Shown here piece by piece: positions 18,839 through 44,231 of a stretch of DNA of 64,000 nt. The DNA is taken from assembly GCA_949752745.1 (NCBI GenBank), contig OX457032.1, forward strand, positions 16,718,720 to 16,782,719. Direction: 5' to 3'. A program made the position numbers and the translations under genes. The notes under the pieces are model-generated. The model was given only the letters and a program-made list of their open reading frames with translations. It did not search any database and was not told the origin of the DNA. The DNA is from Protula sp. h YS-2021. Its lineage: Eukaryota; Annelida; Polychaeta; Sabellida; Serpulidae. Position 1 is the first letter of the stretch; the number at the start of each line of letters is the position of its first letter.

Positions 18839-19178
18839 TAGCGATCCTGGAAAGTCATGGAAAGTCCTGGAAATTTGTAAAACCATTTTCCAGTCCTGGA
18901 AAGTCCTGGAATTTTGTTGAAGGTCCTGGAAAGTCATGGAAAAATGGAAAATGGAAAAAAAATGATAAAAAAATGACATCCCTGAATTCCCGCAATGAGG
19001 CATAACTGAGGGGGAAACAAGCGCAAGATTAAAAAATGTTTATATTTCGGACATCACTTGTGCTTCCTGGTGCTCCTTTTTAACTAGAAAAATTAATTTT
19101 CTATGAAAGTTGACGCACCATTAGCTTCTATTTGTGCATGCATTAACCAAATAATTTTGAAGATAATCACGTCTAAAC

Positions 19179-22575: not shown

Positions 22576-24308
22576 AAGTAGCCACAGGGGCGCCTCAAAG
22601 CGAGCGCAGTTGACTTGCTTATCGTTATATAGCGAGGCTTTGAAGCGGTGCCTGGAAACTTTTTAGCACACCGCTTCTTGGAGCTACTGTTTCTCTAGCT
22701 CCAAGTCAGCTATGTCTCTCTGTCAGAGCTATGAAGCCTTTGTTCCGCTAATAAGGTCAACTCCATGTGTTCAGAGGCACGAATCCATCATACCAGTCCC
22801 TATTATTCATGCACGGAATATCCTTTTTGCAAAACGGGCACGAGTTTTAATGGGATGCAGATCTTTTATTTCTTCGTCAAATTATAGAAAAGTCAGATTC
22901 CTTGATCACCTGTCAAATCTTTGTTTACATTCTGGGCTTTAAATGTCCTGTGACGTCAAGTGACAAAAAATTACTGGTATATAAAAGGATTAATAACTTT
23001 CTGTAAAATATATACGTTTATATACTGTATATATATTGAATACTGTGTATATGTTAAATATATATACTGTTTAATCGCCCGTACTCAAAACACTGGTAAA
23101 TTCAGAATTAGGGATTGTTTGTTCTGTACACCCACAATATTTCACTTTTATTTCTTCCATACTTTTAGAAATACGAGTACCATTTCAAAAGTTTTTGGCG
23201 AATAGTTACAAAATTGAAATACTCACTTTTTCACGTAATGAACCATGTTTCCTGGATATAAACAAATGCCGTTTATTCTGAGTTATTCTCGCTTATCTCC
23301 ATATTTTTCTATTAAAGAAAGCCTAATATAGCGTTGTTCTTGGAGGGCATTTCGCATGCTTCTTCTTAAAATGCTCATCGAGAAGTATGCCTGGGCAGTA
23401 TTTTCGACATCGACGAAACTCCCAAACTTGAATAAAGAGTGGTTTTGCAATTTTGTATTCATTTTTTGGGCGATAATGGTGATTTCTATGTCATGATCTG
23501 AAATAAAGTCTATTTTTCTCAGTGCAAGATTGATATTTGACCGTAAAAATTGTGCGCCATAATTTAAAATTGGGCCATTTATGTATGCAGTGTTTCTAGA
23601 ATAAAGCAATTGACCCGTGCTTTTCATATTTTGGTGACAGTGAGTGGACTTCCACATCCCGCAAATTTTTTTAGCTGATCTGGTGCTAGTATTCACGTGG
23701 ATAACCTCTCGGGCTGATTGGAATTCTTGTCTAGGGTCGTCGAGGCCCGTGAACGGATTTGATGAATTTGGTGGTAGTATTTATGTGGATGACCTCTGGG
23801 GCTGATCAGATTTTGGTGACCTTGTGTGGTCATTGAAGGTCACGACTGGACTTTTGCTTTGTAATACTGTTGTGTGTGAGAGACGTATGGATCATGGAAA
23901 CAGGATTCAAGCAAATTCTTGTGGAAATCGAAAGAAGTTCGATGTTAGTGTTGAATTTCCTATCTTGTGAGCACGATTCAGCTAAGTCCATGAGCGACTG
24001 TTTCTGAAACATAGTGTCTGTGTGGTTCACATCTCAAGTGGGCTAAATTTTGAGAGGCCATTCAGGGTCATTATTGGACTTTCCTGTTTTCACTTTTAAG
24101 ACTGGTATACATTTTGTGAACACAATTTTGCTAAAGCCAGGAAACGATTTTTTTTTTGGGGGGGGGGGGGGGGCTTGGTATGAGTGCATTGTATGAGTGA
24201 CCTCTCAGGATCACATTGAGAAGTCACTGAAGGCCAATATTAGACTTTGAACATTTAATTCTGACAAATGTCGTTTACCGATGTTGTTATAACTACCAAT
24301 ATCTTCCA
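22576..24308 (+). repeat. 1,733-bp direct repeat, copy 2
   Basis: Apparently near-identical to 16969-18701. The left boundary is exactly the right terminus of the hAT element. After the right boundary (ctaccaatatcttcca) the two copies diverge at once. See copy 1 for content. Confidence 0.9.
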
Positions 24309-27300
24309 GAGTTGATTTGGTAGTTCACTGATTTATCTGTGACCTGATGAATTTTTAGAACATATTTAAAATTTTGGAATGTCTCAAATTTCTACACCTG
24401 TAATTTTAAGGTAGTTTGAAAAAAAAGTGATATGTGGGTTACACCGATGTCGATGCTGTATTACAGAGTAGCAGCTCTTAAGGAGCGCCTTTGGGATCTA
24501 GAAATTTGTTTCTTCTGCCGAATTTTGAGCAAGAGGTTGAACCTTTCTAGAATTATAGTAGCTGAATAAAACTCATTTCGCTGTTCAAGACTTTCTCAAA
24601 GGTGTATGTACTGTATGTGTTAAGGCAAACTGTCAAATTAATGTTTACAAACTTCCTGAAAATTTCAGGAAGTCTTGTAAAGTTGCTGAAATATTTCAGG
24701 AACTTCATGAAGTTTCTGATTTGGTGCTTGAAAATTTGACAATTTGCCTGAAATTACAAATCATTCATTGTGATAGCTAAAAGCAAGATCTCTTCTCATT
24801 TCTCACCACAGCGTTGCCCGCAACAAATAGCTATTTATGCCTTTTCATTTTATGTCCTGGCTGTGTCTCAGTTCATGGCTGCAATGTCGCGTCACTGCCT
24901 ATATTCTTACATAATTTGCTAAATTATTTTCAGTTCGACTTTGTTGTATCTTGATGTTGCGTGAAACTTCACATTCAAAAGAAACATCGTATACAGAAGG
25001 AGAGGAAGACTGTAGAAAACTGCAACGTCAACATTACATGTAGATGGCGCTTGTATGTATTTATTATTACTGTTTATTTCATTTTTTCCTTTTTCGTTAC
25101 ATGCATCGGTGTTCTTCGTTACTTTGTCTTTTATCCCCTCTACATGCTTTGCAGTGTAATGTAGACCCTTTGTTTAAAAACAATGGGTGTTTATAAAAAA
25201 TTACGAATTGCTACGTTTTCCAAGTTTTTCTTTGTGCTAATGGCTAATGAAAACCACGTTATGAAGATGACGTAAGGCCTTAGTCCGCATGTACTTACTA
25301 GGGTGTATTACAACTGTATATAATGCTTACAGCAATTGAGAAATTCCATGGTTAATCCGGTATATGATTGTGCTAGAACGCTTGTATTCTCCATTAAGCA
25401 TTGTTTGAAACTGCTTGGGTTGGGAGGGAGTTGGGTGAAATGCATGACAAATGATCCAATCCTGTCAGTTTCGTCGCTTGTCATACAGCAGGCGAAGCGG
25501 AACGTAAAAAAGTCTTGTTGTATTCTAAACGCCAAGCTCATTTCAGGACTGAACCGGCGATTTCGGCATTATCTTGAATGAACAGCTATGTTGGTAAGCC
25601 CATAGTTGTAGGGTTCATGCGTGTTTTGGCAATATCGTGTTACAACTCACCGGCATGTTATCGAGCGGGGTTTCCAGTGATTCAGATCGCGAATATATTG
25701 TGCACGTGAACTGTAAGTTAATGTGCGTAAGTGAAAAAAAAAAAACACGAAGGAATCGGCTTTTTAAACATGATATTGCCAGCGTTTGTTGCTTTCTAAA
25801 CCTTTTAATTTATGGTAACATGTTAGTTTTTGAACTTATACTTTAACTGTTAAAGTGGTAAACGCCCGTTTAGTTTTCTTTTTCTTTCCAGGTTTTCTAA
25901 ACGCCGCCTACATATGGTTAAGTTAGTTTTAGTCCCCACATGCTTTTCTTTTCTTAACTACTGTTCTTTGAATTGTATATGAACTTACTTGATAGCATGC
26001 TAGACCGGTTCGAGAACTGGAACAGCATAACTGGGACAGGGCCGCTAACGGCTTTGTCCACTTTAAACTTCGCTTTTTTCGATTTTTGACGGTTTTACGA
26101 GAGATTTTAGTATTTACCTGTAAAGAAAGTGTGTGAGTATTGGTAAGTGCATACACACATTTATTGCTTTGTCCAGGTAACGAGTTTTAGGTAACTTGCC
26201 GAGCGTGTGGGTATATGCTGTGGTTTGCGTACATTTGACCAGTTCGCTGAAGCCACGGGTGTATGTGTACAAGACTATGCGTTCACATCAAGTCACAAAG
26301 AATTACGGCAAATGACAAATTGTGGTATTTTCCAAACTGGTATGAAATAGTCAGTTGAAGTATAAAATAGAGAGAAAAAGCTTCGAAAGCTGGAGATTTG
26401 TGGAACTTTCGTTTTGTCAACTGTGGATGAGTGCTGTACGAGTGCTGTGTGACGCTGCATGCTTCATTACAACGCAAACATTTATGTGAATTTCGTAATT
26501 TCATTGGAGCTCAAATGAGGTCTACGGCACTCTAGTTGTGGACGTGATTTCTGAAATTTACCATTACTCTTTTCGAGGTTTGTACCAGTGAAAACTAGTT
26601 GCCGATAAGTGTCTGAGCGATCGGCCACAAATGATTTAATTAGGTTGTCTGCAAGTCTCATAGGAAAGGCATCTCACTCTCATTTCTCTGTATGGATTCC
26701 GGCCAACCTGGCATAGGAGTGGGCCCGGACAATGCCAGCGAAAAAGTCCGGACTCGGACTAAAGCGGCGCGCACTAGATTAAAGACAGCTGATCTTTTCC
26801 GATCGTTGGTATGGCACGCAAACGGACCAGCATAGCAGTTAAATGAAGTTAAAAAGCCACAAAAACAATTATAAATAAGGAACAAAAATAATTTACGCAT
26901 TACGGCGTTATATATCAATGTAATTTACGCGGTGGCTTTACTGTGGTACGTTTGATAAATCCATTGAAAATTCAACCAGTTGTCTAAGCTGTATTATATC
27001 TGATTTGGAAGCTGAAAAAGAAAGTGAACCCCATTTTAAAAACTGAAATTAAGATTTCAGGTGTTTGATAAATTATTACATGCGACATCGGTTCATCTTC
27101 AGCAGATATGAATGAGCGATTGATTCCCTTTCATGTGCTTTGACAAGCAGTCTTTGATCTGTTGCCGGTGTTCAGCTGTTTGCTTTCAAACTATTATAGA
27201 AATTTCAATGATTCTGCCATCAGTAGATGCGCAGAAATCGACCAGATTTTTTTGGTCATATAATTATATGAAACATCGATTTCAGCCCTGTTAGGTTATG

Positions 27301-28191
27301 GATAAAGAACCAAATTTATGTCCAGTATAGGTGTCGTTATTTACTTTGTTGCGAAAATTGGATTATGTATGGTAAACATGGTGGGAGTGGTGTTTTTTTT
27401 TTTTAAATGCTTCACTTGTGATTTTGTGACTGTTTCTTCTGTATGTGACTGCATACGATTCAGCTCTGTGTCCACAAAATAAATACGGGTTGACGCACAG
27501 TTCGCCGTCTGGACAAGGTCTTTGATGTAGCCCTGAATACTTTGGAAACTGAAAGATTACTTAACTTCCTTTGAGATTAAAAAACAAAAACAAAATTGCA
27601 CAACTTTAATGGATTAGTTTTCGTGCGAAAACTCCATATTTGTCAACGGCGTGGCAACCACACATTCATTCACTGGGAGAGGTAAAAGAAACTGGAAATG
27701 GTGCGGTCGGTTGTTTAGCAGGCTATTGGCGGATTGAGAGGGGAAAAAATGCTGATGAGGTGACAGCGTGCTTCTTTGTTGTGGAGAGTATCGTGTTGGC
27801 TTGCAGTAAATAAGAGCCAAACGCTCGTCAGGAGATAGGGCTTTGGTTCTTAAATTTGTTGCAGCTTTGAACCAGAAAAAGATAATTGCGAATAAAAAAA
27901 AGCAGGGGTTAGGGAAATTGCTGTAGACATTTTGACATTACAAAAAAATATTGTGATAAGTGCTAAGATACTTCGAGGGATATTTTCATCAAAGACATTA
28001 TTTCCGAGTGCTCCTTGATTGATTACCAGCCATTAAGAGACGACCGCGCTGCTTTGTATCAGAGCAGTAGAGGATCGCTGGATGAGATTCCCTGAAACCG
28101 ATGTCATGAGGAATTTATGTGTGCTTTATTCGAGGCAAACACCACACTCACGCGCGATAAAGGATACAGACTAGTGGTATGGCGACGGGTT

Positions 28192-28279
28192 GTCACAGTT
28201 ACGTTTGGATGCCGTCACAGTTGCGTTTGGATGCCGTCACAATAACGTTTGGATGCCGTCACAATTACGTTTGGATGCC
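28192..28279 (+). repeat. 22-bp minisatellite, four copies
   Basis: Four copies of gtcacagttacgtttggatgcc, with one to three substitutions in copies 2-4. The short ORF that spans it appears incidental. Confidence 0.9.
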
Positions 28280-31200
28280 CTCTCCCCTTTCCTGTCAATC
28301 CTGATCAATCTAAACAAATACACCGAAACGGAATATCGCGTCTTGGAAAATGACCTCGTGATTTCAATACATAAATCTCTAGGTGTTGAATTGTTACCAA
28401 AAGAGCAGAAGCGGCTAGATTATTAATGTGAAAATTGTATTCTACATTTTCACTGCCTGGAAAACTTGTACTCATGGAGTGTTGCTGTATTATTTTGAAG
28501 AAGATTCCGTGGTGTACCTGACGGCTTTATCCGGAGAGACAACTTGTAGACCGTGTTAAGAGGTCATAACGGCAAAGCCATAAACAGTAGGACTTCACAG
28601 CAAATGAATATTAGAATTTTTTTTCATTATTATTGTAATTAAGATTGAACATTAAAATGAGCGATATCATTATTTGGTTATTGCTGTGGGACTGAACATT
28701 AAAATGAGCCGTATAATTATTTTCTTAGCTGATTTTGTACCGTGTAAAAAACTTCACGGTAACGGATAGCTGGGTGAACGAACATAAAAAAAAACAAAAA
28801 AACAAAAAAAAAAACACAACTCATTCTGGACATCACGGATAAAAGACAGTTGGATTGGATAGAAATGTTTCAAAGATATTTTATGCATGTAAATGCTGGC
28901 TATAGTTTTTCAGTCTACTCTTAACTGAAAAAAAAATGCCTGAAGAGCACGATAGTGGCTAGACGCTGTAACCATGCCAACCGTGAAAATCTGCTCATGT
29001 CTGAGCTGCATCAGCGACAATGACAATCTGGTATGGCAGACTGTTACTTTTCCCTATCATTAAGACGGCTCTATACAGCGTTTTTTTGATAATGATGTTT
29101 TTAGGTAACTAAATTTTGACAAGCGTCTTTAACAACTTTTTGTGTTGGTCGTGACGTCATTGAGACTGATCGATGCCGTAAGAGGACCTTGACCACCACC
29201 CCCTATATATTCCAGGTGTAGTAAAAATAAATAGGTCGCGTGCAACCATTCATACAACATGTTTCATTCAGAGCGTTTTAAATGCCTTACCTGAATTGTA
29301 TTTTCACACCTATTCATGTATGAAACAATGTGGTTGTTAAACTGGGACCGTGCAGCAAGTGCTTTTAGTGGGCCTTGACGCGTGAGCCGAAAGGCCAGCA
29401 AATGACTTATTGCGTTGTTCTCAAGTTACAACCCAACCACGGCTTCCATTTTGATTTTTTTTAATTAATTTATCGAGACAAGTAAAGCTGATTGTTAGGG
29501 TTTTGCATTCATTTTGGACTCTTACTTAAGTTCCCAATTGGGCATGCGTTTACAGTATTTGATTTTTTTTTTTTTCAAATCATTAGTTTGCTATGGAGAT
29601 ACTTCCCCATCTTTGAGAAATTCTGTTTGAAGCACCAACCAGCAATTAGAAACCCTAGTAATGACGTCAATATTGGAGCAAAAATATCCCGATGAGAAAA
29701 TAATTGGAATCAGGTGGAAGCAACATCAGTATTATTAATCCGATCTTACCCATTGTGCAACACGCATCACGGTAAAAAGTGCGTCTGATATCTGCAATTC
29801 TGCCTGCGTGACAAAAAATAAAACAATATAGAAAATATATTTAAAAAAAAAAAACACATTAGCCAGAAAAGCGGTGACGTGTGTTGAGCTGCTCGTAACT
29901 TCACAGGCTCTTCAATTTGTATTGGGCGCTTGGGCTCTAAATTAGGCGCTTTATGTGCCGATGCGAGACACATTGTCTTGAAATTCCCAGTGGCAAATGG
30001 ATGTGTCGCGTTTCTAGGGTACTACAAGGCACCATTTGAATATTTCCTGAATGGCATGTTTCAAGTAAGAAGTTTCTTTTATAATTTTTTTTTTTATTTT
30101 TGGTAATGTTTTTGAACGGAGATCAAATGCTTGATTTGCCTTTCTAGTGGGAAGCCAGCGCCGTGCCACAAACAGCAAAATCCGGAATCCAGTTTGTCAT
30201 ACTACACACAACCTTCAAGAAATGACAGCTAAAATTTGGCCGTACACCACCGACTTTATTACGTAGAGTCCGGATAGGGCTCCCCCACTATTGGATTGAG
30301 TCAAGAAAATAAGTTTGGGCATGGTTTTATGACCCGATGGAAGTGGGGGTGGGGGGGGGGGGGGGGAGCGAAGGGGGTAAAAAGACCTTGTTTCCCCAAT
30401 CAAAGATATGGCTGAAGGGTTTGAGTCATCTGGACCAGTTTTGGCGTCTGTCTGTTTGGGGTCTTGGGAAGATTGGAGAAAACAGGGCAGCAGTTTTCGG
30501 ACTTATTGCATGCATTAAATACTCCCCCCTTTAAAAACGTGGAATTGATTCGTGATGATAAACTAAAGCGACTGGCAACAAGAGTTATCTCTTTTAGCGT
30601 GAAAAGTCCACTGCGTAAAAATGTCAGTGTGGATTATGGATGAGGGTTCGTGTTGAAAATCACGGAAGTCGTACAAGGTCATTGCGGAGTGGGGAAAATG
30701 ACGTCAGGACGGATCTAATAAGTGTTTCTGGGGGATCAAGCGATTGATATTGTCGTTATCTACGGCAGCAACAATGGAGTTGTATTCAGCGGGTGCTATA
30801 CCCTCGCAAGTAGCCTTTTTCTTGTCCATAAACCAAGGACCGTATCGTTCTGTTAGCATTGAAGATATTTTTTTGCCAAGAATGTTAATATTTTTATTTA
30901 TGTTTGAGATGTATTATTTAATTTTTTATTATATATTTTTTTGTTGTGGGCGGGGGGGGGGGGAGGTTGAGGTGGGGGCTGGGGTAGGACCTCTGAGAAC
31001 TCACTGCGCACCGATTAAAACATGTGGAGTAGTGGCCACGTCGCGTGCCGGTTTCTCCTTTGGTTTCCGCAGCTGTGACCATGGGTGCAAAGCAATTGGC
31101 TGTATACGAGCATATGCTCTTTCCCTCCTAATGAATTGAATAATGTTACAGCTTTTGCATCATGAGAAACGGGAATCCGTTACATTTATCACCCCATCAG

Positions 31201-31983
31201 CCACTTCCTTCGGTAAAAAAAAAAAAAAGACACACAGTACCGTAATGCATGCAATTTATTATCCGGTTTGCGAAATCTATCACAGCGCTTGTTGGCGTGT
31301 CAGTATGTTTTTTTTCTCTCTCTCAATCGCTTACGTGCAGACTTGTGGCAAGGGAAGGGGCTCGGAAGGACGCCACGTCTGTTCCACTGTGTAGCAGGCT
31401 ATTATGTTATTGTGTAGGCTGCTGTTTGATATGGGAATCAGAAAGACATCCAGAACAGTGCCAGTTCCTGAAGAGATAGGGTACATTTATTCCCCTCAAA
31501 CTTTCCTCCCGAATAAAATTATTCATTAGAAAGGTGGTCTCAGGATTGTTGAAAAGAAACTGTGCTTATGTGTGTTCAAAAAAGATCTGCCGAGGACAAA
31601 AATTCCGTCTTAGTAGTATTATAATAAATAAAGAAAACGAGAATTTAAAAAAAAAGATTTGACCTGGAAGTAAAATCTCATCTGAGCAACATGTTGATAA
31701 GAGGTCGAGAATTTCAGACGGCTCAGAGCATCAACCTACTCTGTCGGCGATAGTGTGTTTGTAATCGGTTTGGTTTAATGTTGGTCTAGTGAGATTAAAG
31801 TAAACACTTCTTACGGTTTTAGTGGGAAGAATTGAATAAAGATCTTGTAAAATTAGTGGAGCATGGCACAGGAGGGTGAATTGGTCAGGAGAGTCAACTG
31901 TTGACGGGTTTTTGTGAATTCCTGAATCGACGTCGGGATTCCTAAAACTAGTGAGCACCCCCCTCCCCCACCCACAAAAAAAT

Positions 31984-31984
31984 A

Positions 31985-32046
<62 letters not shown>
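31984..32046. repeat. AAT trinucleotide microsatellite
   Basis: About 20 near-perfect aat units followed by aaat units. It is simple sequence. Confidence 0.95.
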
Positions 32047-32049
<3 letters not shown>

Positions 32050-33372
32050 TGATAAAATAAATAAATAAAAATTTACGGAAACATTACGAAAATCGCTATG
32101 TGCTTTTTGCAGTGCTGTAAGTTTTACAAACACAGGATTTGATTTTGACTTTTGGCAGAACTGATACTTCGAACCTGCAATTAAATTTTACACAAGTCCA
32201 ATATTAAAAGTCAATACCAGTCATTGAGACCTCTGCACTGGCTTCAGCACTGTGCCTGGTGATCTCCTGCAAAGTACCAAATTGAAGCCCTGGAAATGTA
32301 ATTTTTTGGTGCTTGATCTTTATTGAAAAGCGTTGTTTTATTGTTTTGTGAGGGCTGTAGTCTTAACACAACATTGATTTAATGCCTCTTTGCCCCTTCA
32401 TTAATCTCCTAAGGTTTGACTTGCAAGTGTTTAGAATAGCATACTTCGGATCAACGGGAAGAATTCTGTGAGGGCAGAAATCGTCCTTGCATTGGAACTT
32501 CTCTAATTGTGCGCTTTAAGGAAACAACATTTTCACTTGATAGTAGATATTGTTTTACGTAAAAATAATCATTTTATTAATAAGAAGAATAACATTCTAA
32601 GTTGATTTTTGCAAAGTTTTTTCTTCCGATATTTTAATAGCCCAGTTTTACACCTTTTTATTCCACTGGCAAAGAAACCTTTGCAATGAAAGAGCTGTAG
32701 TTGTTTACACCCAGTCAGCAACGCTGTATGTGGGCGCAATTACCGCACCCGGAAACGGATGAGTGCCACTTTTATGTGGGGGGGGGGGGGGAGGGGGGGA
32801 AGTTACTTGGAAAGTTCTGTCCGGATGTAACTGAACAAAGCATGGCGTTGAGTCTTTCCGTCTTGCCACTTGTGACTTTGTGACGTCACGGTTTTCTGCA
32901 TGAGAGCACTGGAATATGGTGGCGGCAAATAATTTTTCCAATTAACACAACTTGTTGAAGTGCCTTTTACGAAAGTTTAAATTCTAAAGTTGCATCTGTA
33001 GTTGATAAATATTTGTTTCGGTGGGAGGGGGGGAGGGGGTATGGCTCATTTAAATGTGATGTTGTGGTTGCTATGAGAATTTCAAGGATACATCCGTTGG
33101 GATAACAGCTGAAAGAGAAACTGCGTTAGCAACCCGTTTTTCTCATGGCAGGAAAGGCTTTGATAAACACCATGGGAAATGTTTGATTTTCTTCCAGAAA
33201 AACGTTCTTCTCTTCTGTTGGAACGCCATGAAGACCTATTCCGTGTTGATATATTCAGATTTGGAGAACAGTCCAACTATATGATCTCATGTGCCAGACA
33301 GTGTCCTTAACTTTTACACGCCGAGGTGTCGTAGAATCTGTTCTTGAAACCACACCTTTTTTTTTGCTGCAG

Positions 33373-36300
33373 AGTTTCTTTGGGCTGGGCCAAAGTGCCG
33401 ACGTTGACATTGTATTGGACGGTCAAGATTCGCGGAAAACTGCTGAAATCAAAACAGAAGATGGTCGTAAAGAACGACACTATCTGTACTTCGATGGAGA
33501 GACAGTATCAGGGAAGGTAAGTATTGTTGACTAACAGCGCCTTTTGCTCTCTGTGTGTTATTTAACGGGTCAAGTGCGCCCTCAGTAGAAACAAAGACTG
33601 TGCCATTTTCAGCAGAGGTTCCCCTTGATATCCAAACAGTATGATATTAAATCACTAAAATATACACTTACAGTTGTCTCACTCTTTGTTGTTAATATGA
33701 ATGGAAAGTTGCAAGCGATAGTGAGTACTTTTTATTCGGATAAATGCACAAAATAGAAATCAGTTTTGAACATGTTTAAAACGATTAGCATTAAAATGGG
33801 TGAAAACAAAAGGGGGGCGATTACCGCAGACGCATTGGTAGGCTGTCGATTTTTTTTTCTTGAGATAATAGGTTATTTTCTCGTTAAGATTTTCCCTGAT
33901 GTACTGTGCTTCACCACACAGCCCTTAGTGGGGCACTTGAGTGGCGTGTGAAATAAAATTCGAGTAAAAATTCCATGAACATTGCCATTTGCTAATTAGA
34001 AAATGTAGTTAACTGCAGTGTACTGCAAGAAAAAAAAGACAAATACAAAGACAGGCAATAAATAAAGGACCTAAACTGCCAAAGGTGGAGCAAGAATCCT
34101 ACGGTTTTCAGGTAGACACAGTAAGATTATTGCATGCACTTGTGGATTCCAGGTGAATATAACATTAAAAAAGACTGGCTCGCGACTGGAGCACCAGGGA
34201 ATAAAATAGAATTTATAGGCCAAATAGGTAAGTTTTAAGGAATTCATTGGGCAGATAGATAAGTCTATAAGATTTAAATTTGTTAAATTGTTACTACATT
34301 TAAAATCAGATTCTTCCAAAAGTACAATACACAGAAAAAGACTAGTAACTTTAAATCAAATCTTAAAAAAAAACAAAAAACAAAAAAACAATTATAGGAA
34401 TCGGCGTGTGACCAGCAATAATTTCACATGTCAGGGTTTATAATTTTTACGGGAATTTCACAATAAACCATTCATCATCACTTTCAGAAGACATTCTGCC
34501 CACTGAATTTTTGTATGAAGTACCACCATTTAACATAAAAGACAGTATCTTTAATAAGAACTTTTAAGTTTTAGGCGGAAAGAAACATTTATTGTTGTTG
34601 TTGACAGAGTTATACTATGATCGCGGGAATCATCATGAATTCACGTCACTAGTGAAAGAGCTGGCGCGGCCAGGCGAGTTAGGGCAAAACACAAGCTACG
34701 ATTTCGAGTTTATGAACGTAGAAAAACCGTACGAGTCTTACACAGGTGCAAATGTTAGGTTACGGTAAGTGCCCGGAGCCTTTTTTTCTGCCGTATTTTA
34801 TTTCCGCGCCATCATGAGGCGTGAAATATTCTGAGCATCAGAAGTAATTAGTTTATTAAGAAATCCGCTTATATTCAGCAGAGGCCAACTGAAAAAAAAA
34901 AAAATAATAATAATTAGCATAAAAATAGAAAAAATCTACCCGAAAATAAACGGCAATAATTTAAAGTTTTAAAGTGTTAATCTGTACATCATATTTTCCA
35001 ATTAACTGCAGTTTTGATGCAAAGCAAAGATGAGAGCTGAAGGCCGAGTAACAACTGTTCATGAACGTTCTGTTTGCAGCTACTTCCTGCGAGTGACAGT
35101 CGTGAAACGAATAAGTGACTTAGTCAAGGAACAAGACATTATTGTACATACGTTATCGCAATACCCTGAGCTCAATAATAGCATCAAAATGGAAGTGGGC
35201 ATAGAAGATTGTTTACATATAGAATTTGAATATAACAAATCCAAGTAAGTTTTATCTGATGTCCGTGTACCTGAAAATGACTATAATGAGGGAGAGGGTG
35301 AATCAATATTTCTGATGCGAAGAATGTACTGACGGTATCAGAGTAATAAAATTAATTCTGTTTTCCAACAGAATAGAGATGATGTATTTTCTTGTGCAAC
35401 ATAGCCAAAAAATGCTATATAAATATAATTTAAATATATTAAATTAATTACAAAAAAAAAAAAAAAAAACAACAGACGCTGACAAGAACGGTCTTTTTTT
35501 GTAAATAAATAATTATTTTCAGCGGCTTTGGCACTGCGCTGTCTTCACGTCGAGCCACAAGTGCCATAAAAAACTAGTATTATAGAAGTTGATCAACAGC
35601 TGCCAAAGACATTTGGTTCGGTTTGATCTAATGCCGATCTTTTTTTTCTTTTTTTTCTTGTGTAATTTCCATTTCGCAGGTACCACTTAAAGGACGTGAT
35701 CGTTGGTAAAATTTATTTTCTACTCGTGAGAATAAAAATTAAATTCATGGAGTTAGCGATCGTTAAGAAGGAGATTACAGGCTCAGGTAAAGCAGCAGAG
35801 GAGCAGTCTCACAGCTGTCAACGTTGTCTTGTTTGCGCTGTGGAATTTGTATGATTACCAGGCTTGACAGCTGATAAACCCCTCCCCCCCCCACACCCTC
35901 CCCAACCCGACCCCTCATTTATTCCCCACAGGGAATATATGCGATCGACCGCGTGTCTGTCGGTCGGTCTGTCATCAAGAGCTTGTTAACGCCATAACTT
36001 TAAAAATCCTGCAAGTATTTTAATGAAACTTGGTATGTAGCTTCTATGGGAACAAACACGGATCGGTATTATAAATGGGCCAGGTTCGTCCAAGGAAAAT
36101 GGACCAGATGGACTTGGAAAATTTCAGCTGTTGATTGACTATTGATGTCCGTGTTTAACTGATGGTTGGCCTGTGGGAAATATGTGGGCTTGCACACTGC
36201 TGTAATTATTTTAATATCACTGACAAATCATTTTCCTATCTTCTGTTTTACAAGAGCAAAACAAAGGGTTGATATTTCTCTAAAATAAAGAGAGAGGGTT

Positions 36301-39068
36301 CGGGGAGGGATATCAAGAAGTTATTTCTAAGCTGCCATTCCCTATACATCTTTTGTGTGTATAAACTGTTGTCAGAAAGCAACGCTTGTTATGTATGAAG
36401 AAAAGGTTGTGTAGTAGGAGATGTCAAATTCACTCCTGTCTTGTCACATCGGTTTTCAAGCCTAGTGTATTTTGTTTTAAATATATTATTATTTTTCTTT
36501 AAAAATGTAAGTCTCATCTTTATTTACTCCTGATTTTAGATTATTTTATATCGGTTTGATTTCATAGCAATACTATTTTGGTGGAAAGCGTTGTGGTCTC
36601 TGTTCAATGAAACCATGACGCAATCAGTTAGTACGCATCCGTTACTCGATAATGTACTTTTTTCACACAGGGTTACGGCATGCCATGTTTCTGTTTCTTA
36701 CCTGTGTCTTCTATTTTCAGATTTTTTGCCTAAGTTCTTTATGGATGTTGTTTCAGTCAAGAAACATTTTCCGATTAGGTTGATTTAGCTGAATGAACAG
36801 TAGTGTCTCGTTGTATTAGGCATGCATCATCTGTGTTAGTCAAGATTTAAAGTCTTGTCACTGAATGAATGCCGTTTCCATTTTAGTTATCGTGACTGCC
36901 AATGATTCTTGTCATCATCGGATATTAGTCTCTAAAAACATATTAAAAAAAATGAAAGAAAAATAGGGCAATTTTATTCTTAGGAATTTTCTTACTCTCT
37001 CAAAAAAATGTCACTTTCGGCAGCATTAGGGGTCGTTTCCACAAGGATGCCGCCTAAACATTTTGCTTTGTATTTTAAAGCACGAAAAGGGGATATTATA
37101 AATAGTCACGGCATTTATGATCATTAAAATGTAGCTTTATTCTTTGTTATTTTGTTTGAATTGAAATTAAGTTCGACTTCAATTTATGTTGGAATTTTGC
37201 ATGTATGTTGTAGATATCATTTAAAAGATGTGATAATCGGCAAGATATATTTCTTGTTAGTACGAATAAAGATTAAGCATATGGAAATACAAATAATCAA
37301 GCGAGAAACCACCGGCACAGGTTCGTAGCAGACAGCTCGTGAAAACTCGTTGTTGCAAAACAGCTGACCTCTGCGGAGAGCTTTCTGTAATGTATAATCA
37401 CAGAGTGGATAGATTTTTAAAAACTACCATTTTCGCGGTATCCCTCTTGAGTAAGCAGAGTGAAAAGAGTTGTTATTACCGGACCTAACCGCTGTAGAGG
37501 TTGGCTGTTGAACAACAACGCTTGAAAACTCAACCAATGATATCATGTGGCTGTACGTAGTTTTTTGCCTGTTTATTTGCCTCAGGCTTCTTGAGAAAAA
37601 TTGATGGTAAGATAGGTTAAATTTGAAAACAAAATTCTTGTGTGGTATATGGAAAAAAAGGCATGCCTTCGACTTGGACATATAATTGTGATACATATAC
37701 ATCACCTCGATGAGACACTTGTGAAAATGTGTTTTTGTTTCAGGTCCAAATACATTTAATGAAAATGAAACAATAGCCAAATATGAAATTATGGACGGTG
37801 CTCCAGTTCGAGGTATGGCGTGCAAATGCTCACAGCTCCCTGTTAACTTTGTGTGCAAACAAAATATTATCTTCTGCCCCTTGTGCCTGTAATTGTATGG
37901 TGCTCAAAGAATGGGTAAAATTTGAGCAGTTCAAAGTGTTTTGACTTGTTCATTTAAGAGTGATGCAATGGGGGGTTGCTGAAGCTGAAAATGTTACTGA
38001 GGAGATAAGCTCGAAAATATAAGTTAGAGTTTAAATAGAGGTTTAAAAAGTGTGTGGTTATATTTGCACAGAATTACTTGTTTATATAAATAATATATGT
38101 CAAGGAGAAAAATTGACGACAGAAAGGCCACTTTTTATATTTGACAAAAAAACAAAGATGAAAAGAACTTTATTTTAAATATATGATTAAAGATTGATGA
38201 AGAAAAAAATGTAAAAGCGGAAGAGCTGCGAAAGCGTTTCTGTTGACTGTCTGTCTGTGTGTCGCCACCAGGTGAATCCATTCCAATCCGCCTGTTTCTG
38301 AGCGGCTACGAGCTAACACCGACCATGCGCGACATCAACAAGAAGTTCTCGGTACGCTATCACCTCAACCTCGTGCTGGTCGATGAGGAGGAACGGAGAT
38401 ACTTCAAGCAACAGGTGCGTGTCCGTCATGATGACGTCACAGTGTGCTGAAGCTCGCCGGGGGAGGGGGGGGGGGGGCGTGCGTCATCAAGAGCTGTGCT
38501 TGATCGATTCGGATTCAAAATATTTTACTTAATGATTTTTGATTTGATTGAGACTTGAATTGATCGAAGTGAGGCCTGAGAACTCGAGCAACATAGCCAC
38601 GCCTCTCGCACCTTCTCTTATCACTCCGCCCCTCCCTCCCTTCTTCCCTGTCACTCCCCCGCATCCCGCGCACCTCCGTCCCGCCCTCTTGGCCACCTCT
38701 GTCTTCCTGTTGCGCTCAGCCTTTGTCTCTCCACAATATCTCTGTATTTCTAACAGCTATTTTTTCATATCCGCAGTTGAGGTTGTGATCGACTCCAGTT
38801 GTGATTGATACTTGTTGCCTGTTTTTTTATTCAGCGCATTGTTGAGGTTCTTCACGGTTGATTTGCTGCTTGTTGTCTGTTGTAGGAAATCACAGTGTTC
38901 AGAAAGGCCGAGAAAGTGCGTCGTCCTATCCAGTCAGCAAAGCCCGTGAAACAGGCTCTCAGTCCCGACCAGCCCTCCATGGCAACGGCTCGCATGGAGG
39001 ACCGAGCCGCCGCCCCCAACCACTCAACGCAGGACAATGGCGACGGGCCCGAGGGCAAGGCCGAATAG
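33373..39068 (+). CDS. VPS26: retromer subunit VPS26 (VPS26B-like), with two alternative exon 6 versions
   Basis: Exons: 33373-33516, 34153-34227, 34608-34764, 35080-35244, then 6A 35680-35786 or 6B 37214-37320, then 37744-37812, 38272-38414 and 38886-39068 (stop). The ATG must be in an unplaced upstream exon, since the first exon here starts SFFGLGQSADVDIVL. Motifs from N to C: EIKTEDGRKERHYLYFDGE, RLEHQGIK, YYDRGNHHEF, VEKPYESYTGANVRLR, KMEVGIEDCLHIEFEYNKSK, AKYEIMDGAPVRGESIPIRL, TPTMRDINKKFSVRYHLNL and DEEERRYFKQQ. The C-terminal tail is divergent and hydrophilic. The length is about 348 aa; vertebrate forms are near 330. VPS26 is an arrestin-fold subunit of the VPS26-VPS29-VPS35 retromer that sorts cargo from endosomes. 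Exon 3 (34153-34227) is one base short of the expected phase and reads a stop. Confidence 0.95.
34153..34227 (+). other. VPS26: VPS26 exon 3 with a one-base frameshift
   Basis: The exon reads VNITLKKTGSRLEHQGIK and then TAG at 34207-34209. One frame over it continues IEFIGQI up to a consensus donor (gtaagt). The length is 75, but the neighbouring phases (0 before, 1 after) need 76. The missing base falls at an A4 run (34203-34206), where an A is the simplest loss. Sequencing error, a real null allele or editing are all possible. Confidence 0.85.
35680..35786 (+). other. VPS26: VPS26 alternative exon 6A
   Basis: 107 nt, entering in phase 2 and leaving in phase 1. It encodes YHLKDVIVGKIYFLLVR then IKFMELAIVKKEITGSG. 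The acceptor follows a long T-rich tract (ending ttcgcag) and the donor is gtaaag. It is homologous to exon 6B over its whole length. From memory its variable half is closer to the vertebrate VPS26A type. Confidence 0.9.
35885..36130. repeat. dispersed repeat fragment in the VPS26 6A-6B intron
   Basis: It starts with a C-rich tract, then ctgtcggtcggtctgtcatc, then acgccataactttaaaaa...atgaaacttggtatg. This word order is typical of abundant degenerate dispersed repeats in invertebrate genomes. It is non-coding. It separates the two alternative exons. Confidence 0.4.
37214..37320 (+). other. VPS26: VPS26 alternative exon 6B
   Basis: 107 nt with the same phases as 6A. It encodes YHLKDVIIGKIYFLLVR then IKHMEIQIIKRETTGTG. 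The acceptor is weak in pyrimidines (catgtatgttgtag) and the donor is a less usual gttcgt. From memory its variable half is closer to the vertebrate VPS26B type. It lies 1,427 bp downstream of 6A. Confidence 0.9.
38459..38477. repeat. G-rich run downstream of VPS26 exon 8
   Basis: A G-rich patch containing a 13-base G run (38465-38477), 50 bases into intron 8. Further runs flank the gene end at 39128-39140 and 39170-39215. Confidence 0.8.
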
Positions 39069-40006
39069 TACGCCGTGGGCGGAGTGTCTGTGTGTGTATC
39101 TGTGGGCGCTGGGTAATGCGGAGGGGTGGGGGGGGGGGGGAGTGGGAGTGGCTGTACTCCTGTAGAACTGAAACGGGGGGGGCGGTGTGGTGAGGAGGGG
39201 GTGGGGGGGGGATTTTGTCAGGTTTCGAATTACTCGTTCTGTGTCATGGGGCATGACGTGGAACGTTACGGCGAGACTGAGCCGCGCTTATCCGTGCTGT
39301 AGACCACGATGTGTATCCTCTCCATGCGCGGCAGAAATCACGCGGGAGACATGCAGCTTAACAGCCGGCGCGGAATACTTTGATAATTTTAAATTTAGTC
39401 CACTCACTGTTCCTTTATGTGTAACCTCACTTCAAAGTCAGCCAAGTATTGCCAAGCGTTATCCTGTTTAAAGAATGCCTAGACTTCGATTTTTAAAAAT
39501 TTCCCCCTCTTCTTTTTTTCGTGGGGGAGGGCATTGTTTTACATTCTTTTTTTTCCCGAAAAGCAAAGACTAAAAGGTTGAAATTACTATTATAATAATC
39601 ATTATTTTTTGTTGTTGCTAAGTTATCATAGTGCTAAAATTTAGGGAAAATTTTTATTTCAATTTTTATGTTCCGTGTCTGGGTTTTTTTCTGTTGTTTT
39701 TTTGCATACACTTGCAGACACTGGATGCTGCGATCCAAGCGAGCTAATCGAACACTTGCGGTTCATGTTTTCTAAAGCACTTCTGGCTGCGTTTTATTTA
39801 GAAAAAAGGTGGCACATCAAGGAAGGTTAAACACACTCAGTCCTTGTTTCTTTTCGATAAATCTGTCGTTTGACCGTCGGGCTCGTTCTATGGCATAATA
39901 TTAACAAAAGAGGTATTTGTTTTTTGTTTTTTTTTTTTAATTTGAAAAGTCCTGTTATAGCATACCAAAAATGTCGTTAAGAACGTTAACGTGTAGGGGA
40001 GGCAGG
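39069..40006. other. VPS26 downstream region
   Basis: G-rich just after the stop (several runs of eight or more Gs between 39120 and 39215), then T-rich. I saw no AATAAA close to the stop; the nearest candidates are far away (41392, 42909). The 3' UTR is therefore long or uses a variant signal. Confidence 0.4.
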
Positions 40007-40140
40007 GGCGCATTGGGACATGGAGCGCATTGGGACACGGGGTGCATACGGACATGGAGCGCATTGGGACACGGGGTGCATACGGACATGGAGCGCATTG
40101 GGACACGGGGTGCATACGGTCATGGAGCGCATTGCAACAC
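40007..40140 (+). repeat. 34-bp minisatellite
   Basis: About 3.5 to 4 near-perfect copies of a unit reading gggacacggggtgcatac ggacatggagcgcatt. Single gggacac words continue at about 40467 and 40504, and a reverse-sense tgtcccc is near 40790. The minus-strand reading frame through it encodes a repeated Pro-Met/Cys peptide that looks incidental. Confidence 0.85.
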
Positions 40141-43050
40141 TGGTTTTCTAGGAATCTACACGAGAATACAAAAACTAAATCACAGTTACACTGATGAGAA
40201 GCAGAAGCCTCCGTAAAAATCATATAAAACCAAACTGATAAGGAACAGATACATGGGCGAAGAAATCTTCAACTTCTGCGAGTAAGATAAACCAAATTCG
40301 GTTATTTACATATTTTTCATAACCAAAGCCGATGGCGGAGATTAGGAAAACATTTAAATGTGAAGTGCAACAGTAAAAGTGTGAAACACCATTGTTAATA
40401 CTGAGGTTAGGAAACGTGGTTGAAAATTGTTTGGATTTTAGGTGAAAAGTCGGGTTGGGTTGCATAGGGACACTGGTGTTTCCTGAGGGGAAATGTGCAT
40501 TGGGACACTGATTATGGCCAATTTCCCGTTTGCTTTGGCAAGAGAAGGACTTGAGGTTTCTTAGCTTGTTCTGCATCACTGTACACCGTCAAAAATATTG
40601 CGGGGTGGATTGGGGCAGCAACTTCGTAATGCAGATTTTTGTCTTCAAATGTCTAGAAATCGTTATGTTCCTTCACAAACATCAGTGGTACTCGAAAATT
40701 TATTGAGACATTTCATTTGTCAATCGGGTGTGCTAAACCGTTTCGTTTATTAGTAAACATAACTTTTTTCGTCCTAGTGCGCCATTGTGTCCCCTAGTAA
40801 TGGTGTGTGTTCACTGGACTGTCCAGTAACTAGCCACATGCAAGGGTTCCCGTGCCTTGGTTGTACTAAATTAACTGGCGTCATTGTGAGTGGACCTTAT
40901 ACTTAACCCGGGGGGGGGGGTTGGGGGGAGGCAGCGGTTAGGGCAGCGCCATAATGCAACTGAGTGTAATGTACAGTATTGTGGAGAACGGGGAAAACAT
41001 AGTTCGAGCATATGTATATGTGTATCTCAGCAGGTGAGATAAATTTAAAACTACTTGAAAAGAATATAGCGAGGATTTCAGTTGGTTTAAATTTCATGTT
41101 TTTTTTTTTTCGCATTGGTCTTTGCAAAAGGCACTGTGCGTCGTTTTTGCCAGTTTTGTGTTGCGTGAGGCCAGATGTTAACATTAACGAAGATGAGGCA
41201 AAGCATTTAATGTGTTACTATGTGATTGTAGCTGCATGGAACTTGAAAGAGTATAGAGTTACACAGTTTGCATATGCTTTTGAATGTCGTCACAAAATGG
41301 CAGCCAACACGTCCAATGCGGCCTGGTTCATTCAAGTAGTTTCTGTGTGTCGTTCTGAAAATAGACCTGCAAACTGCATTTGAAAGGCAATTAATAAACT
41401 TTAAAATAGAAACTAGTCTCACGCGTCAGTGCTTTGTTTATGTGTTGAAGCATTTCCATTGTGGTTTGTTGATTTGAGGATTTGCTTACGTCATGTTGAA
41501 AGCTAACAGGCCAGTAGCAGTGTGAAGCGCGAATCCATGGAAACGAGCTTTATAGTACACTGGTGTTTACGAAACAGTACGTCCTGTTTTCACAAAATAA
41601 ATCGTTGTACCAATGGCTTATAATTAAATGTGTCATATCGAAGGGCAGAGTATACACGTTAAAACGGGAATAAAACGCATGCTTATTTTGAGAATTGTTC
41701 CAATTTGGTTTAGCAGTAAGCTGAGGGTAGTGGTAAGCTTCTTTTACACGGCTTTGGGGATGTCTGGATCTGCCTGAGGGTCCTGTACACGTCAAGTGCT
41801 CTCAGGCTTCGTAGCATTCTTGAAAAGTCTTGAATTTGCCAAATCATGGCCGAAGTCTATATTGAAGCTGAGTATTAACCTTCAGTGATCGTTTTACTCT
41901 CTTAATTGTTCATTTCAAGGGTGGTTCGCATTTCCGGTATGTGCGTTCCATTTTCAAGTGTCTATGTTTTGGCTGTAGATTTGTTAGATCCGCCTGGACG
42001 CGCTGGGTTACGTGTGTAGGAGTGCATAAACAACTTGTGAATACGGCACAGATGTGTCATCCATGTTGCTGTCCCGTGCAGTTTAGATGCTTACCATTCC
42101 TGTTTTACTTTTGGGTACTTAGAGGGAAAAAGGTACAACTCGTCTACTGTGCAGTGACACTCAGAAAACAGTACCTTTATACTGTAGATTGTTCGGACTG
42201 CAATATTGCCGTCGTGTGTGTCTGTTGCTGACGTAGAAGGTTGAAGTGTTCTCTGTTATAAGAGCTGTTTCAAACAGTTCAACCATAGGTTTAACAATTG
42301 TCATCAAGTTTGTAGTTCTGTCAAGCCGTTTTCGCTGTGTAGGATGCGTAATTTAAACTGTGACAATTTCCCGACTTCTTTTCTGTGCTTCTGCCCTACA
42401 CAAAGTCTGCTCCAAACGTTTCAAAATGCGAGCGTCATTTTTGTCGCGTCAGTGAAGTGCGAAAAAAATAAGCCTCTGGCCTTTACTGTAAGTTTAAAGC
42501 AAAACCTACGCTATGAATAGTAGAGCCACACCGCTCGTCTGATTTAAAACCAGTACAGTTTCAATTTTGCTCTACGGCAAAAGATATCCTTTGAAGGATG
42601 AATGCGTCGGGCGGTAAAATGTAGACCGAATTTGAAAAAAAAGAGAAAACGCCGGGGTCAGAGTTGCAGTTATAAATACATGTTTTCGCTTCGCTAGATT
42701 TGCAGAAAAATTTCTTCGAAATCAAGTTATGCAATTTTAACGTCTGTTCTGACTGCTCGATTGTTTGTGCAATTTAATTGTAAATATTCAAGGCATGAAC
42801 GCCTTGAAAGGTAGAAGAAAATGCTTGTTAAATGCAACATTATTTAGATGTAAATATTGTGAGCAGATTCTATTGTGATCAATGAACTATGTTTTCAGTG
42901 TAAAACAATAAACAAGAATATGTATAACTCTGCAGTTTTAGTTCAGTGTATTAACACTCTTGTGCATTGCAGTAGGCAGAGCCTAATTGTTCCCGGCAAA
43001 TTAATGAGCGCAGCTAATTAGCGGAGTCACAGTTCCTTCTACGTGATTAA
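40141..43050. other. intergenic, no gene recognised
   Basis: ORFs of up to 123 codons occur without recognisable domains. There is a G run at 40910-40920. AATAAA words at 41392 and 42909 could end a long VPS26 3' UTR, but nothing proves it. Confidence 0.4.
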
Positions 43051-43101
43051 CCCCCCCCCCCCCCCAAAAAAAAAAAACAAAAAACAAAAACAAAAACAGG
43101 A
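43051..43101. repeat. C15 run followed by an A-rich tract
   Basis: C15 at 43051-43065, then A12, then a caaaaa-type repeat. It is low-complexity sequence. Confidence 0.9.
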
Positions 43102-44231
43102 CTCCAGTTTGATGGGATAAACATAGAAGCAGAGAAATTTAGAACTAAAGAAGAAAATGGAGAAATACATCAAAATCACTTTGAAATAGATATACAGCTA
43201 TTTCTGTATTAGAAAACCATTTTGATACTATCATAAAGAAATTGTCGTACATTTTAATTGTTTGACACATTAGCAATACATCATTACAGAAAAAGTCAAC
43301 TTTTAATACATTTTCTGTTTCTTTATATATTTTCCTTACTGTAATCCTGCGAAATTCTTCTACTGCGCATGCGCACTTCAACTCTTGAGCTGGATTATGC
43401 AAACTACCTATAAAAACCCTAAAAATGTTATGTGGGCATCGAAAAAATGGAAAAAATATCAATGCGAATATGGGGATGCAATTGCTCTAGTGTTGTATAA
43501 AAGTAATAAAGACGCGGTAGCCCGAGCCAAATACAGTTGGGAACGCAAAAATTATGACACCGTGAAGATTTAAAATTTTAGATTTCCGCAGACCTTTGTT
43601 AAAAGCCATGTCACAATGTAGATATTTGTACTTTTGAAATAAACTTATGAAAATTAGCATTTTCATATCCTGCGTTACCGCATGACAAAACTTTTTCCCG
43701 ACGCTGATAAAAATTCTCAAGAATAGATTCTTGTGACATAATAACCGCAGTACTTGATAAATGGCCTAAGACCACAATTAATTTACTTCTATGTTTCTTT
43801 ATAGAATTTCAAAATCTGACTTCTTTTACAGCATTGCTGGGGAATCAAGCTTTATTAAATCCTTCCAACTAATCCTTGAGAAGGCAAAAAACACCAAAAT
43901 ATTTGAGGGTTGAACAATTTGAAATTTTTGCTATCTCGCATCAAATAGGGGCACCCATGGATCTCGATGTCGCTCGATGACATGAATAAATTACTGAAAT
44001 TTGACGGCATATTTCTCCAAAAACAATACCCTTGATTGCAAGGAGTTTAAGCATGTCTCCAGCACAACCCTTGGGAACATAAACATGCCACAAGTTTATT
44101 ACTGATTGCCCAGAACAATCATAACATTATCGAAAAAGTACAGCTGCCATGCTAATAGTCTTCCTGTTATCGGGCAATGAAGGCGGAAGTAATTGTGGTC
44201 TTGTTCCAAATGCGATTCCGAAAACAGGAAG

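What the first reader, a model, noticed from the sequence alone, without database searches (positions are those of the whole stretch)
35680..37320. VPS26 has two mutually exclusive 107-nt exons resembling VPS26A-type and VPS26B-type sequence
Exons 6A (35680-35786) and 6B (37214-37320) are full-length homologues with identical length and identical phases (in 2, out 1), each with its own GT-AG borders. Including both puts 6B out of frame and gives a stop after three codons (g|at atc att taa). Skipping both also gives an early stop (aag tcc aaa tac att taa). Only one of the two can be used in a functional mRNA. The encoded segments agree in YHLKDVI-GKIYFLLVR and then diverge: IKFMELAIVKKEITGSG against IKHMEIQIIKRETTGTG. 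From memory these parallel the corresponding stretch of vertebrate VPS26A and VPS26B. One gene could therefore make by splicing a choice that vertebrates make with two genes. The segment lies in the C-terminal arrestin lobe, so it might tune VPS35 or cargo/SNX contacts. I know of no description of this, but could not search.
Basis: partly seen in the sequence, partly recalled or inferred. Interest (0 to 1): 0.88.

Follow-up and report, generated by a model that had tools for sequence, protein, structure and literature searches.

The report
Retromer gene with swappable exon pair
A gene for VPS26, a part of the coat that recycles cell-surface proteins, carries two homologous copies of one 107-base exon, of which a message can hold only one without an early stop, and since the same two exon types occur in molluscs, the gene likely makes two versions of the coat by an old splicing choice.

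Summary
VPS26 exons 6A (35680-35786) and 6B (37214-37320) are 107 nt each, with equal phases and GT-AG borders; either alone keeps exons 4-9 open, both or neither gives an early stop. They keep 27 of 35 residues while synonymous change is saturated, so both copies look selected.

The pair is not private to this genome. A 6A-type segment occurs in 10 of the 210 fetched proteins that hold the segment (9 mollusc records, 1 nemertean), and two mollusc gene models hold 6A then 6B in tandem. Window 6A groups with those segments (96/89); window 6B is one residue from the common lophotrochozoan form. The organism is likely a lophotrochozoan, not a cnidarian.

The VPS26A/VPS26B parallel is not supported: 6A is 6-7 residues from VPS26A and 7 from VPS26B, and PMC9038204 (passages) places the A/B duplication in vertebrates.

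Function is inferred: isoforms differing at 204-217 of the C-terminal arrestin lobe. No RNA-seq was at hand; exon 3 as assembled has a one-base frameshift; the AU tests did not reject the rival groupings. No description was found.

The parts
33373..33516 (+). VPS26 exon 2 (exon 1 not found)
   Evidence: Pfam Vps26 match at C9:16752104-16752247
34153..34227 (+). VPS26 exon 3; one-base frameshift at the A-run 34203-34206
34608..34764 (+). VPS26 exon 4
   Evidence: Pfam match
35080..35244 (+). VPS26 exon 5, shared, ends two bases into a codon
   Evidence: Pfam match
35680..35786 (+). exon 6A, 107 nt: YHLKDVIVGKIYFLLVRIKIKFMELAIVKKEITGS
   Evidence: Pfam match
37214..37320 (+). exon 6B, 107 nt: YHLKDVIIGKIYFLLVRIKIKHMEIQIIKRETTGT
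   Evidence: Pfam match
37744..37812 (+). VPS26 exon 7, shared
38272..38414 (+). VPS26 exon 8
   Evidence: Pfam match
38886..39068 (+). coding part of VPS26 exon 9, TAG at 39066-39068

Best explanation
VPS26 here has a duplicated exon 6 whose two copies (6A, 6B) cannot both be in, or both be left out of, a message without an early stop, and it likely works as a mutually exclusive splicing switch that would give one retromer gene two protein versions. SHOWN: two full-length exons with equal phases; the frame logic; little amino-acid change against saturated synonymous change; the same two exon types in other species. INFERRED: splicing joins 5-6A-7 or 5-6B-7, and double or zero products would go to nonsense-mediated decay. 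INFERRED: the exon was duplicated in a lophotrochozoan ancestor, after which 6B took Gln208 and 6A took an aromatic residue at 204 and Val210. INFERRED: both versions bind VPS35, since the LLVR stretch that is changed in the solved VPS26B mutants is the same in both, and the differences at 204-217 would tune nearby contacts of the C-terminal lobe with sorting nexins, cargo or other coat units.
For: Frame logic. 27 of 35 residues equal, 19 of these 27 by different codons, synonymous differences 26.5 over 23.4 sites, dN 0.16. Yardstick: a decayed copy of exon 8 on contig C6 of the same assembly has dN 0.15, dS 0.39 and two stop codons over its exon 8. 6A-type segments (MELAIV) in 10 of 210 proteins with the segment; Val210 in 10 of 10 of them and 0 of 202 other segments. 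Gln208 in 21 of 21 other segments from named lophotrochozoans. Tegillarca and Nucella models hold 6A then 6B. Two Patella species' records differ at 9 of 331 residues, 8 of them at 203-217. Six of the 10 6A-type records are named 'isoform X' by NCBI. Segment tree: window 6A with the five other distinct 6A-type sequences, 96/89. Differences between 6A and 6B cluster in the last 14 codons (7 of 14 against 1 of 21, Fisher p 0.003).
Against: No RNA evidence from this organism. Exon 3 is frameshifted as assembled. 'Window 6A with window 6B' is 12.1 log units worse but not rejected (p-AU 0.19), and by plain distance window 6A is as near (4 differences) to several unduplicated animal forms as to the nemertean 6A. 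The 6A-type list was drawn with 6A queries from lists capped at 120, so its taxon range is neither complete nor unbiased. No control element was shown; the intron-pairing test is inconclusive. Structure models were poor in the C-terminal half. Known SNX27-contact residues of VPS26A, D44 and L154, lie outside this exon (PMC9038204, passages), and SHIP164 tells VPS26B from VPS26A by residues 1-160 (PMC10987540, passages).
Confidence: 0.75

Rival explanations
1. One gene does by splicing what vertebrates do with VPS26A and VPS26B: 6A is a VPS26A-type and 6B a VPS26B-type exon, by descent or by convergence.
For: 6B is 2 of 36 residues from VPS26B. 6A shares KKEITG with VPS26A chain 9q8m. Holding window 6A with VPS26A is not rejected (p-AU 0.17).
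Against: 6A is 6-7 residues from VPS26A and 7 from VPS26B. The other 6A-type segments read [KR]RE[TSI]TG. The A/B duplication is placed in vertebrates (PMC9038204, passages). VPS26A has Gln at 208, which here is the 6B state.
Confidence: 0.05
2. The exon pair arose more than once: the window's lineage duplicated its own exon 6 apart from the molluscs, as reported for mrp-1 in other animals (told in PMC7434440, passages).
For: AU test does not reject window 6A + 6B as sisters (p 0.19); 36 columns only; window 6A has Phe where the 10 others have Tyr at 204.
Against: Window 6A shares Val210, found in 10 of 10 6A-type and 0 of 202 other segments, and window 6B shares Gln208; same order 6A-6B in two molluscs; synonymous sites saturated; best tree groups 6A with 6A at 96/89.
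Confidence: 0.12
3. 6A is only a poison exon: it is included next to 6B to shut off the protein, and its peptide is not used.
For: 6A+6B inclusion gives an immediate stop; 6B is the form nearest to other animals.
Against: 6A keeps its residues through saturated synonymous change and the 6A-type peptide is conserved in molluscs and a nemertean. A single-6A message is open over exons 4-9. 6A-type proteins without 6B are the records in 8 of the 10 cases.
Confidence: 0.04
4. The window's VPS26 is a dying gene: exon 3 is truly frameshifted and the exon pair is a relic here.
For: Frameshift in exon 3 as assembled.
Against: Exon 2 and exons 4-9 are open and conserved with either exon; the break is in a short A-run, where base-calling deletions are common (established knowledge); the family search of the own genome found no other undecayed VPS26A/B-type locus (six-frame, best candidates only).
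Confidence: 0.04

Closest known systems
coq-2 mutually exclusive exons 6a/6e in nematodes, flatworms, annelids and molluscs (PMC7434440, passages)
   Same: Two homologous exons of one gene, one used at a time; conserved across phyla; few residue changes; one exon near the general form and one clade-specific.
   Different: There RNA-seq and knock-outs show use and function; here neither was available. Other gene and pathway.
Alternative oxidase duplicated exon 10 of the oyster Crassostrea virginica (PMC5589949, abstract)
   Same: Tandem exon duplication in a mollusc; the first copy is the novel one and the second the conserved one, as with 6A and 6B.
   Different: Last exon with 3' alternative splicing; stress response measured there.
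Vertebrate VPS26A and VPS26B gene pair (PMC8083963 and PMC9038204, passages)
   Same: Two VPS26 versions that could make two retromers.
   Different: Two genes, differences along the whole protein, duplication placed in vertebrates; here one exon of one gene.
Human tandem duplicated exon substitutions and mutually exclusive exons (PMC9741552, PMC5740500; search listing and abstract starts only)
   Same: Isoforms identical save for one homologous region; many such events are described as ancient.
   Different: No VPS26 case seen in what I read.

Membership tests
Mutually exclusive tandem-duplicated exons | Adjacent homologous exons of equal length and phase, each with its own splice sites | tested here: met
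Mutually exclusive tandem-duplicated exons | Both or neither exon breaks the reading frame (common, not universal) | tested here: met
Mutually exclusive tandem-duplicated exons | Both exons under purifying selection | tested here: met
   decayed-copy yardstick
Mutually exclusive tandem-duplicated exons | Transcripts with one or the other exon and rarely both | not testable with these tools
   No RNA-seq. Protein records of each type exist in other species; two gene models hold both exons, which look like gene-finder joins but were not checked.
Mutually exclusive tandem-duplicated exons | Intron pairing (docking and selector sequences) in the cases that use RNA structure | tested here: inconclusive
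   intron 6A-6B with intron 6B-7 0 of 25 shuffles as low, intron 5 with intron 6A-6B 1 of 25, intron 5 with intron 6B-7 14 of 25; whole-intron duplexes of uneven composition, no second species' DNA
VPS26 (retromer subunit, VPS26A/B type) | Vps26 family domain, nearer to VPS26A/B than to VPS26C | tested here: met
   Six exon matches over the Pfam cut-off; 2r51 VPS26B E 3.4e-157 against VPS26C 8p0x E 3.7e-09
Vertebrate VPS26A / VPS26B pair | 6A specifically like VPS26A and 6B like VPS26B | tested here: not met
   6A 6-7 from VPS26A and 7 from VPS26B; 6B 7 from VPS26A and 2 from VPS26B

The most novel reading that the evidence does not exclude
A retromer isoform switch at least as old as the mollusc-nemertean split: stem lophotrochozoans duplicated one VPS26 exon and have since made two retromer coats from one gene by splicing, an invention separate from the vertebrate VPS26A/VPS26B gene pair.
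Probability: 0.6. Interest if true: 0.75.

Novelty: new member of a known kind. Interest (0 to 1): 0.58.

Why it matters
Retromer is a core sorting coat of eukaryotic cells. A conserved one-exon swap in its arrestin-like subunit would be a natural mutagenesis of that coat: two proteins about eight residues apart, both kept for a very long time. It would be a testable case of splicing doing in one animal branch something like what gene duplication did in vertebrates. Public RNA-seq of oysters, limpets, abalones and snails could test it at once.

Tried and rejected
Cnidarian origin: rejected in favour of a lophotrochozoan; the phylum stays open (nearest by path Capitella, an unnamed record P0004, Paralvinella). 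VPS26A-likeness of 6A: not borne out. Assembly duplicate of one exon: rejected (introns unlike; same two exon types in other species). Another VPS26A/B-type gene: the family search gave eight matches, six of them exons of this gene and two on contig C6. One C6 match is a decayed copy of exons 8-9 and the DNA after them, with no exon 6 in the 20 kb fetched. The other (C6:2053417, over the Pfam cut-off) shows no nucleotide similarity to this gene and 34% identity over 38 residues, E 0.016; it may be VPS26C but was not identified. AlphaFold2 models of a 6A-type and a 6B-type Patella protein had pLDDT under 50 in most of the C-terminal half, so no fold search was run. Intron pairing: inconclusive. 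Papers on L197S/R199E and on F287/V168: none in the library, so the effect of those mutations is recalled only. Exon 1: no ATG|GT[AG]AG site in window 24001-33372; first exon not given. An annelid marker family was meant to settle the phylum but its search did not complete.

Full report
WHAT IS THERE. The + strand gene at 33373-39068 is a VPS26 of the VPS26A/B type: exons 2, 4, 5, 6A, 6B and 8 match Pfam Vps26 over its cut-off, and the best solved match is VPS26B 2r51 (E 3.4e-157), VPS26A chains follow, VPS26C is far behind (E 3.7e-09). Exon 6 is present twice, 6A at 35680-35786 and 6B at 37214-37320, 107 nt each, 1427 nt apart, with equal phases and GT-AG borders. With either one, exons 4-9 are open to TAG at 39066-39068; with both the frame stops after GSDII, with neither after KSKYI. 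My first exon 8 start (38271) was one base off; searches use 38272. Exon 3 as assembled breaks the frame at a short A-run. As the other exons read are open and conserved, a base-calling deletion is the easier reading, but a real frameshift is not excluded.

NOT CHANCE, NOT RECENT, NOT DECAYED. The 6A peptide finds 6B at E 6e-17 in this window, and the next hit is at E 0.98. The exons share 68 of 107 bases. 27 of 35 residues are equal, 19 of these 27 by different codons; synonymous differences are saturated and dN is 0.16. Ungapped intron flanks agree at 37 of 100 and 20 of 100 bases. Differences cluster: 1 of the first 21 codons and 7 of the last 14 change the residue (Fisher p 0.003). A yardstick came by accident: contig C6 of the same assembly carries a decayed duplicate of exons 8 and 9 and the DNA after them (window 38059-43610 against C6 30584233-30590910, in 10 pieces). 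Its exon 8 has about the same dN (0.15) but dS 0.39 and two stop codons (44 codons compared). Thus an unused copy reaches this dN with far fewer synonymous changes and with stops, and 6A/6B do not look so.

WHO ELSE HAS IT. Three protein searches (the cap; 5108, 1360 and 2628 hits, best 120 of each listed) gave 211 distinct proteins. All three queries were 6A-type, two of them scored on the exon region only, so the sample leans to 6A. 210 of 211 hold the segment, as 212 segments. Ten have MELAIV: Tegillarca, Nucella, Haliotis, Patella caerulea, Babylonia (two records), Crassostrea virginica, Biomphalaria, Batillaria (Mollusca) and Lineus longissimus (Nemertea). Val210 is in 10 of 10 of these (part of the word that defined them) and in 0 of 202 other segments; window 6A has it. 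Tyr204 is in 10 of 10 and in 10 of 202 others; window 6A has Phe. Gln208 is in 34 of 202 other segments, 21 from named lophotrochozoans (21 of 21 on my list of these) and 13 from unnamed records; window 6B has it. The Tegillarca and Nucella models contain both segments, 6A first, with a short stray linker, as a gene finder might do to keep frame. Patella caerulea and Patella vulgata proteins differ at 9 of 331 residues, 8 of them at 203-217 (Fisher p 8e-8), which looks like the two isoforms of one gene in two species of a genus. The database is clustered at 90% identity, so sister isoforms of one species can hide behind one entry, and the lack of 6A in the annelid, brachiopod or cephalopod rows is no evidence of loss.

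TREES. Without the exon, the window protein lies in a group of 35 of 48 rows whose named members are all lophotrochozoans (SH-aLRT 93; no starred set holds it). On the 36-residue segment (62 rows), window 6A and the five other distinct 6A-type sequences are one side of a branch (96/89); window 6B lies among lophotrochozoan 6B forms without support. 'Window 6A with window 6B' and 'window 6A with VPS26A' are 12.1 and 12.2 log units worse but not rejected (p-AU 0.19 and 0.17). By plain distance window 6A is 4 from the nemertean 6A, 5-6 from the mollusc ones and also 4 from several unduplicated animal forms. The case for one origin rests on Val210, Gln208, the order and the age of the pair together, not on the tree alone.

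THE VPS26A/VPS26B PARALLEL. 6A differs from VPS26A by 7 (6md5) or 6 (9q8m) residues and from VPS26B (2r51) by 7; 6B differs from VPS26B by 2 and from VPS26A by 7. The KKEITG of window 6A is not the 6A-type form in other species. PMC9038204 (passages) says that VPS26B is ancestral across eukaryotes and that VPS26A came from a duplication in vertebrates. So the exon pair is a separate event. That two VPS26 versions can matter is said for the vertebrate pair: PMC8083963 (passages) on cargo sorting; PMC10987540 (passages) on SHIP164, which binds VPS26B and not VPS26A, there through the N-terminal part.

HOW IT LIKELY WORKS. Splicing would pick 6A or 6B; mistakes shift the frame and would go to nonsense-mediated decay (inferred). 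Both isoforms keep FLLVR, which reads FLSVE in the solved VPS26B mutants 3lh8, 3lh9 and 3lha. That this change blocks VPS35 binding is recalled, not read here (one search found no text). PMC9636581 (passages) places the contact of VPS26 with its own VPS35 in the C-terminal part of VPS26. VPS35 binding is therefore likely common to both isoforms, and the seven differences at 204-217 would tune neighbouring contacts (inferred). Against a role in SNX27 binding: the VPS26A residues named for it, D44 and L154, lie outside this exon (PMC9038204, passages). 6B has a less pyrimidine-rich acceptor than 6A (0.5 against 0.7); both donors match the U1 consensus at 7 of 9. Intron pairing against 25 shuffles each: 0, 1 and 14 as low for the three intron pairs; base composition is uneven and no second species' DNA was at hand, so this is a lead only.

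LITERATURE. Searches: VPS26 with mutually exclusive exons (0 papers); with alternative splicing, exon and retromer (31, 25 listed); with mutually exclusive, exon and retromer (7, 6 listed); mutually exclusive exons with mollusc (23, 15 listed); at least two of tandem exon duplication, mutually exclusive and VPS26 (79, 15 listed); at least three of VPS26, alternative splicing and four mollusc or annelid words (2,965, 15 listed, none of the 15 naming VPS26). I saw titles and abstract starts of those listed, and passages of a few; none of what I saw describes this pair. Six of the ten 6A-type records already bear NCBI isoform names, so the fact lies in databases. The kind is known: coq-2 (PMC7434440, passages) and oyster AOX (PMC5589949, abstract) are close models.

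VERDICT. A real, old and selected exon pair, new to the literature that I could search, of a known kind. Its use in RNA and its function are untested.

Noticed in passing
34203-34206 (exon 3): One-base frameshift at an A-run in VPS26 exon 3 as assembled, with an in-frame TAG at 34207-34209; an assembly error or a real lesion.
   Followed up: partly
G000 contig C6:30584233-30590910 (L008, L009); window 38059-43610: A decayed DNA-level duplicate of VPS26 exons 8-9 with introns and about 4.5 kb of downstream sequence, in 10 aligned pieces, with stop codons in exon 8.
   Followed up: partly
16969-18701 and 22576-24308: Direct repeats of 1733 bp, 99.94% identical, flanking about 3.9 kb with ORFs at 19167-21713 that I recall as hAT-like (Pfam gave only a sub-threshold zinc-finger match): an LTR-like layout round a DNA-transposase-like interior.
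   Followed up: partly
40005-40134: 34-bp tandem repeat, 3.8 copies, about 1 kb after the VPS26 stop codon.
   Followed up: no
51570-52079: ORF with part of a DnaJ domain (PF00226, E 3.6e-09).
   Followed up: no
P0009 and P0015 (Babylonia areolata): Two 6A-type VPS26 records on contigs of different length, so this whelk may have two VPS26 genes that both kept exon 6A.
   Followed up: no
L006 (G000 C6:2053417-2053554): Weak Vps26-family match over the Pfam cut-off, unlike this gene in DNA; perhaps VPS26C, not identified.
   Followed up: partly
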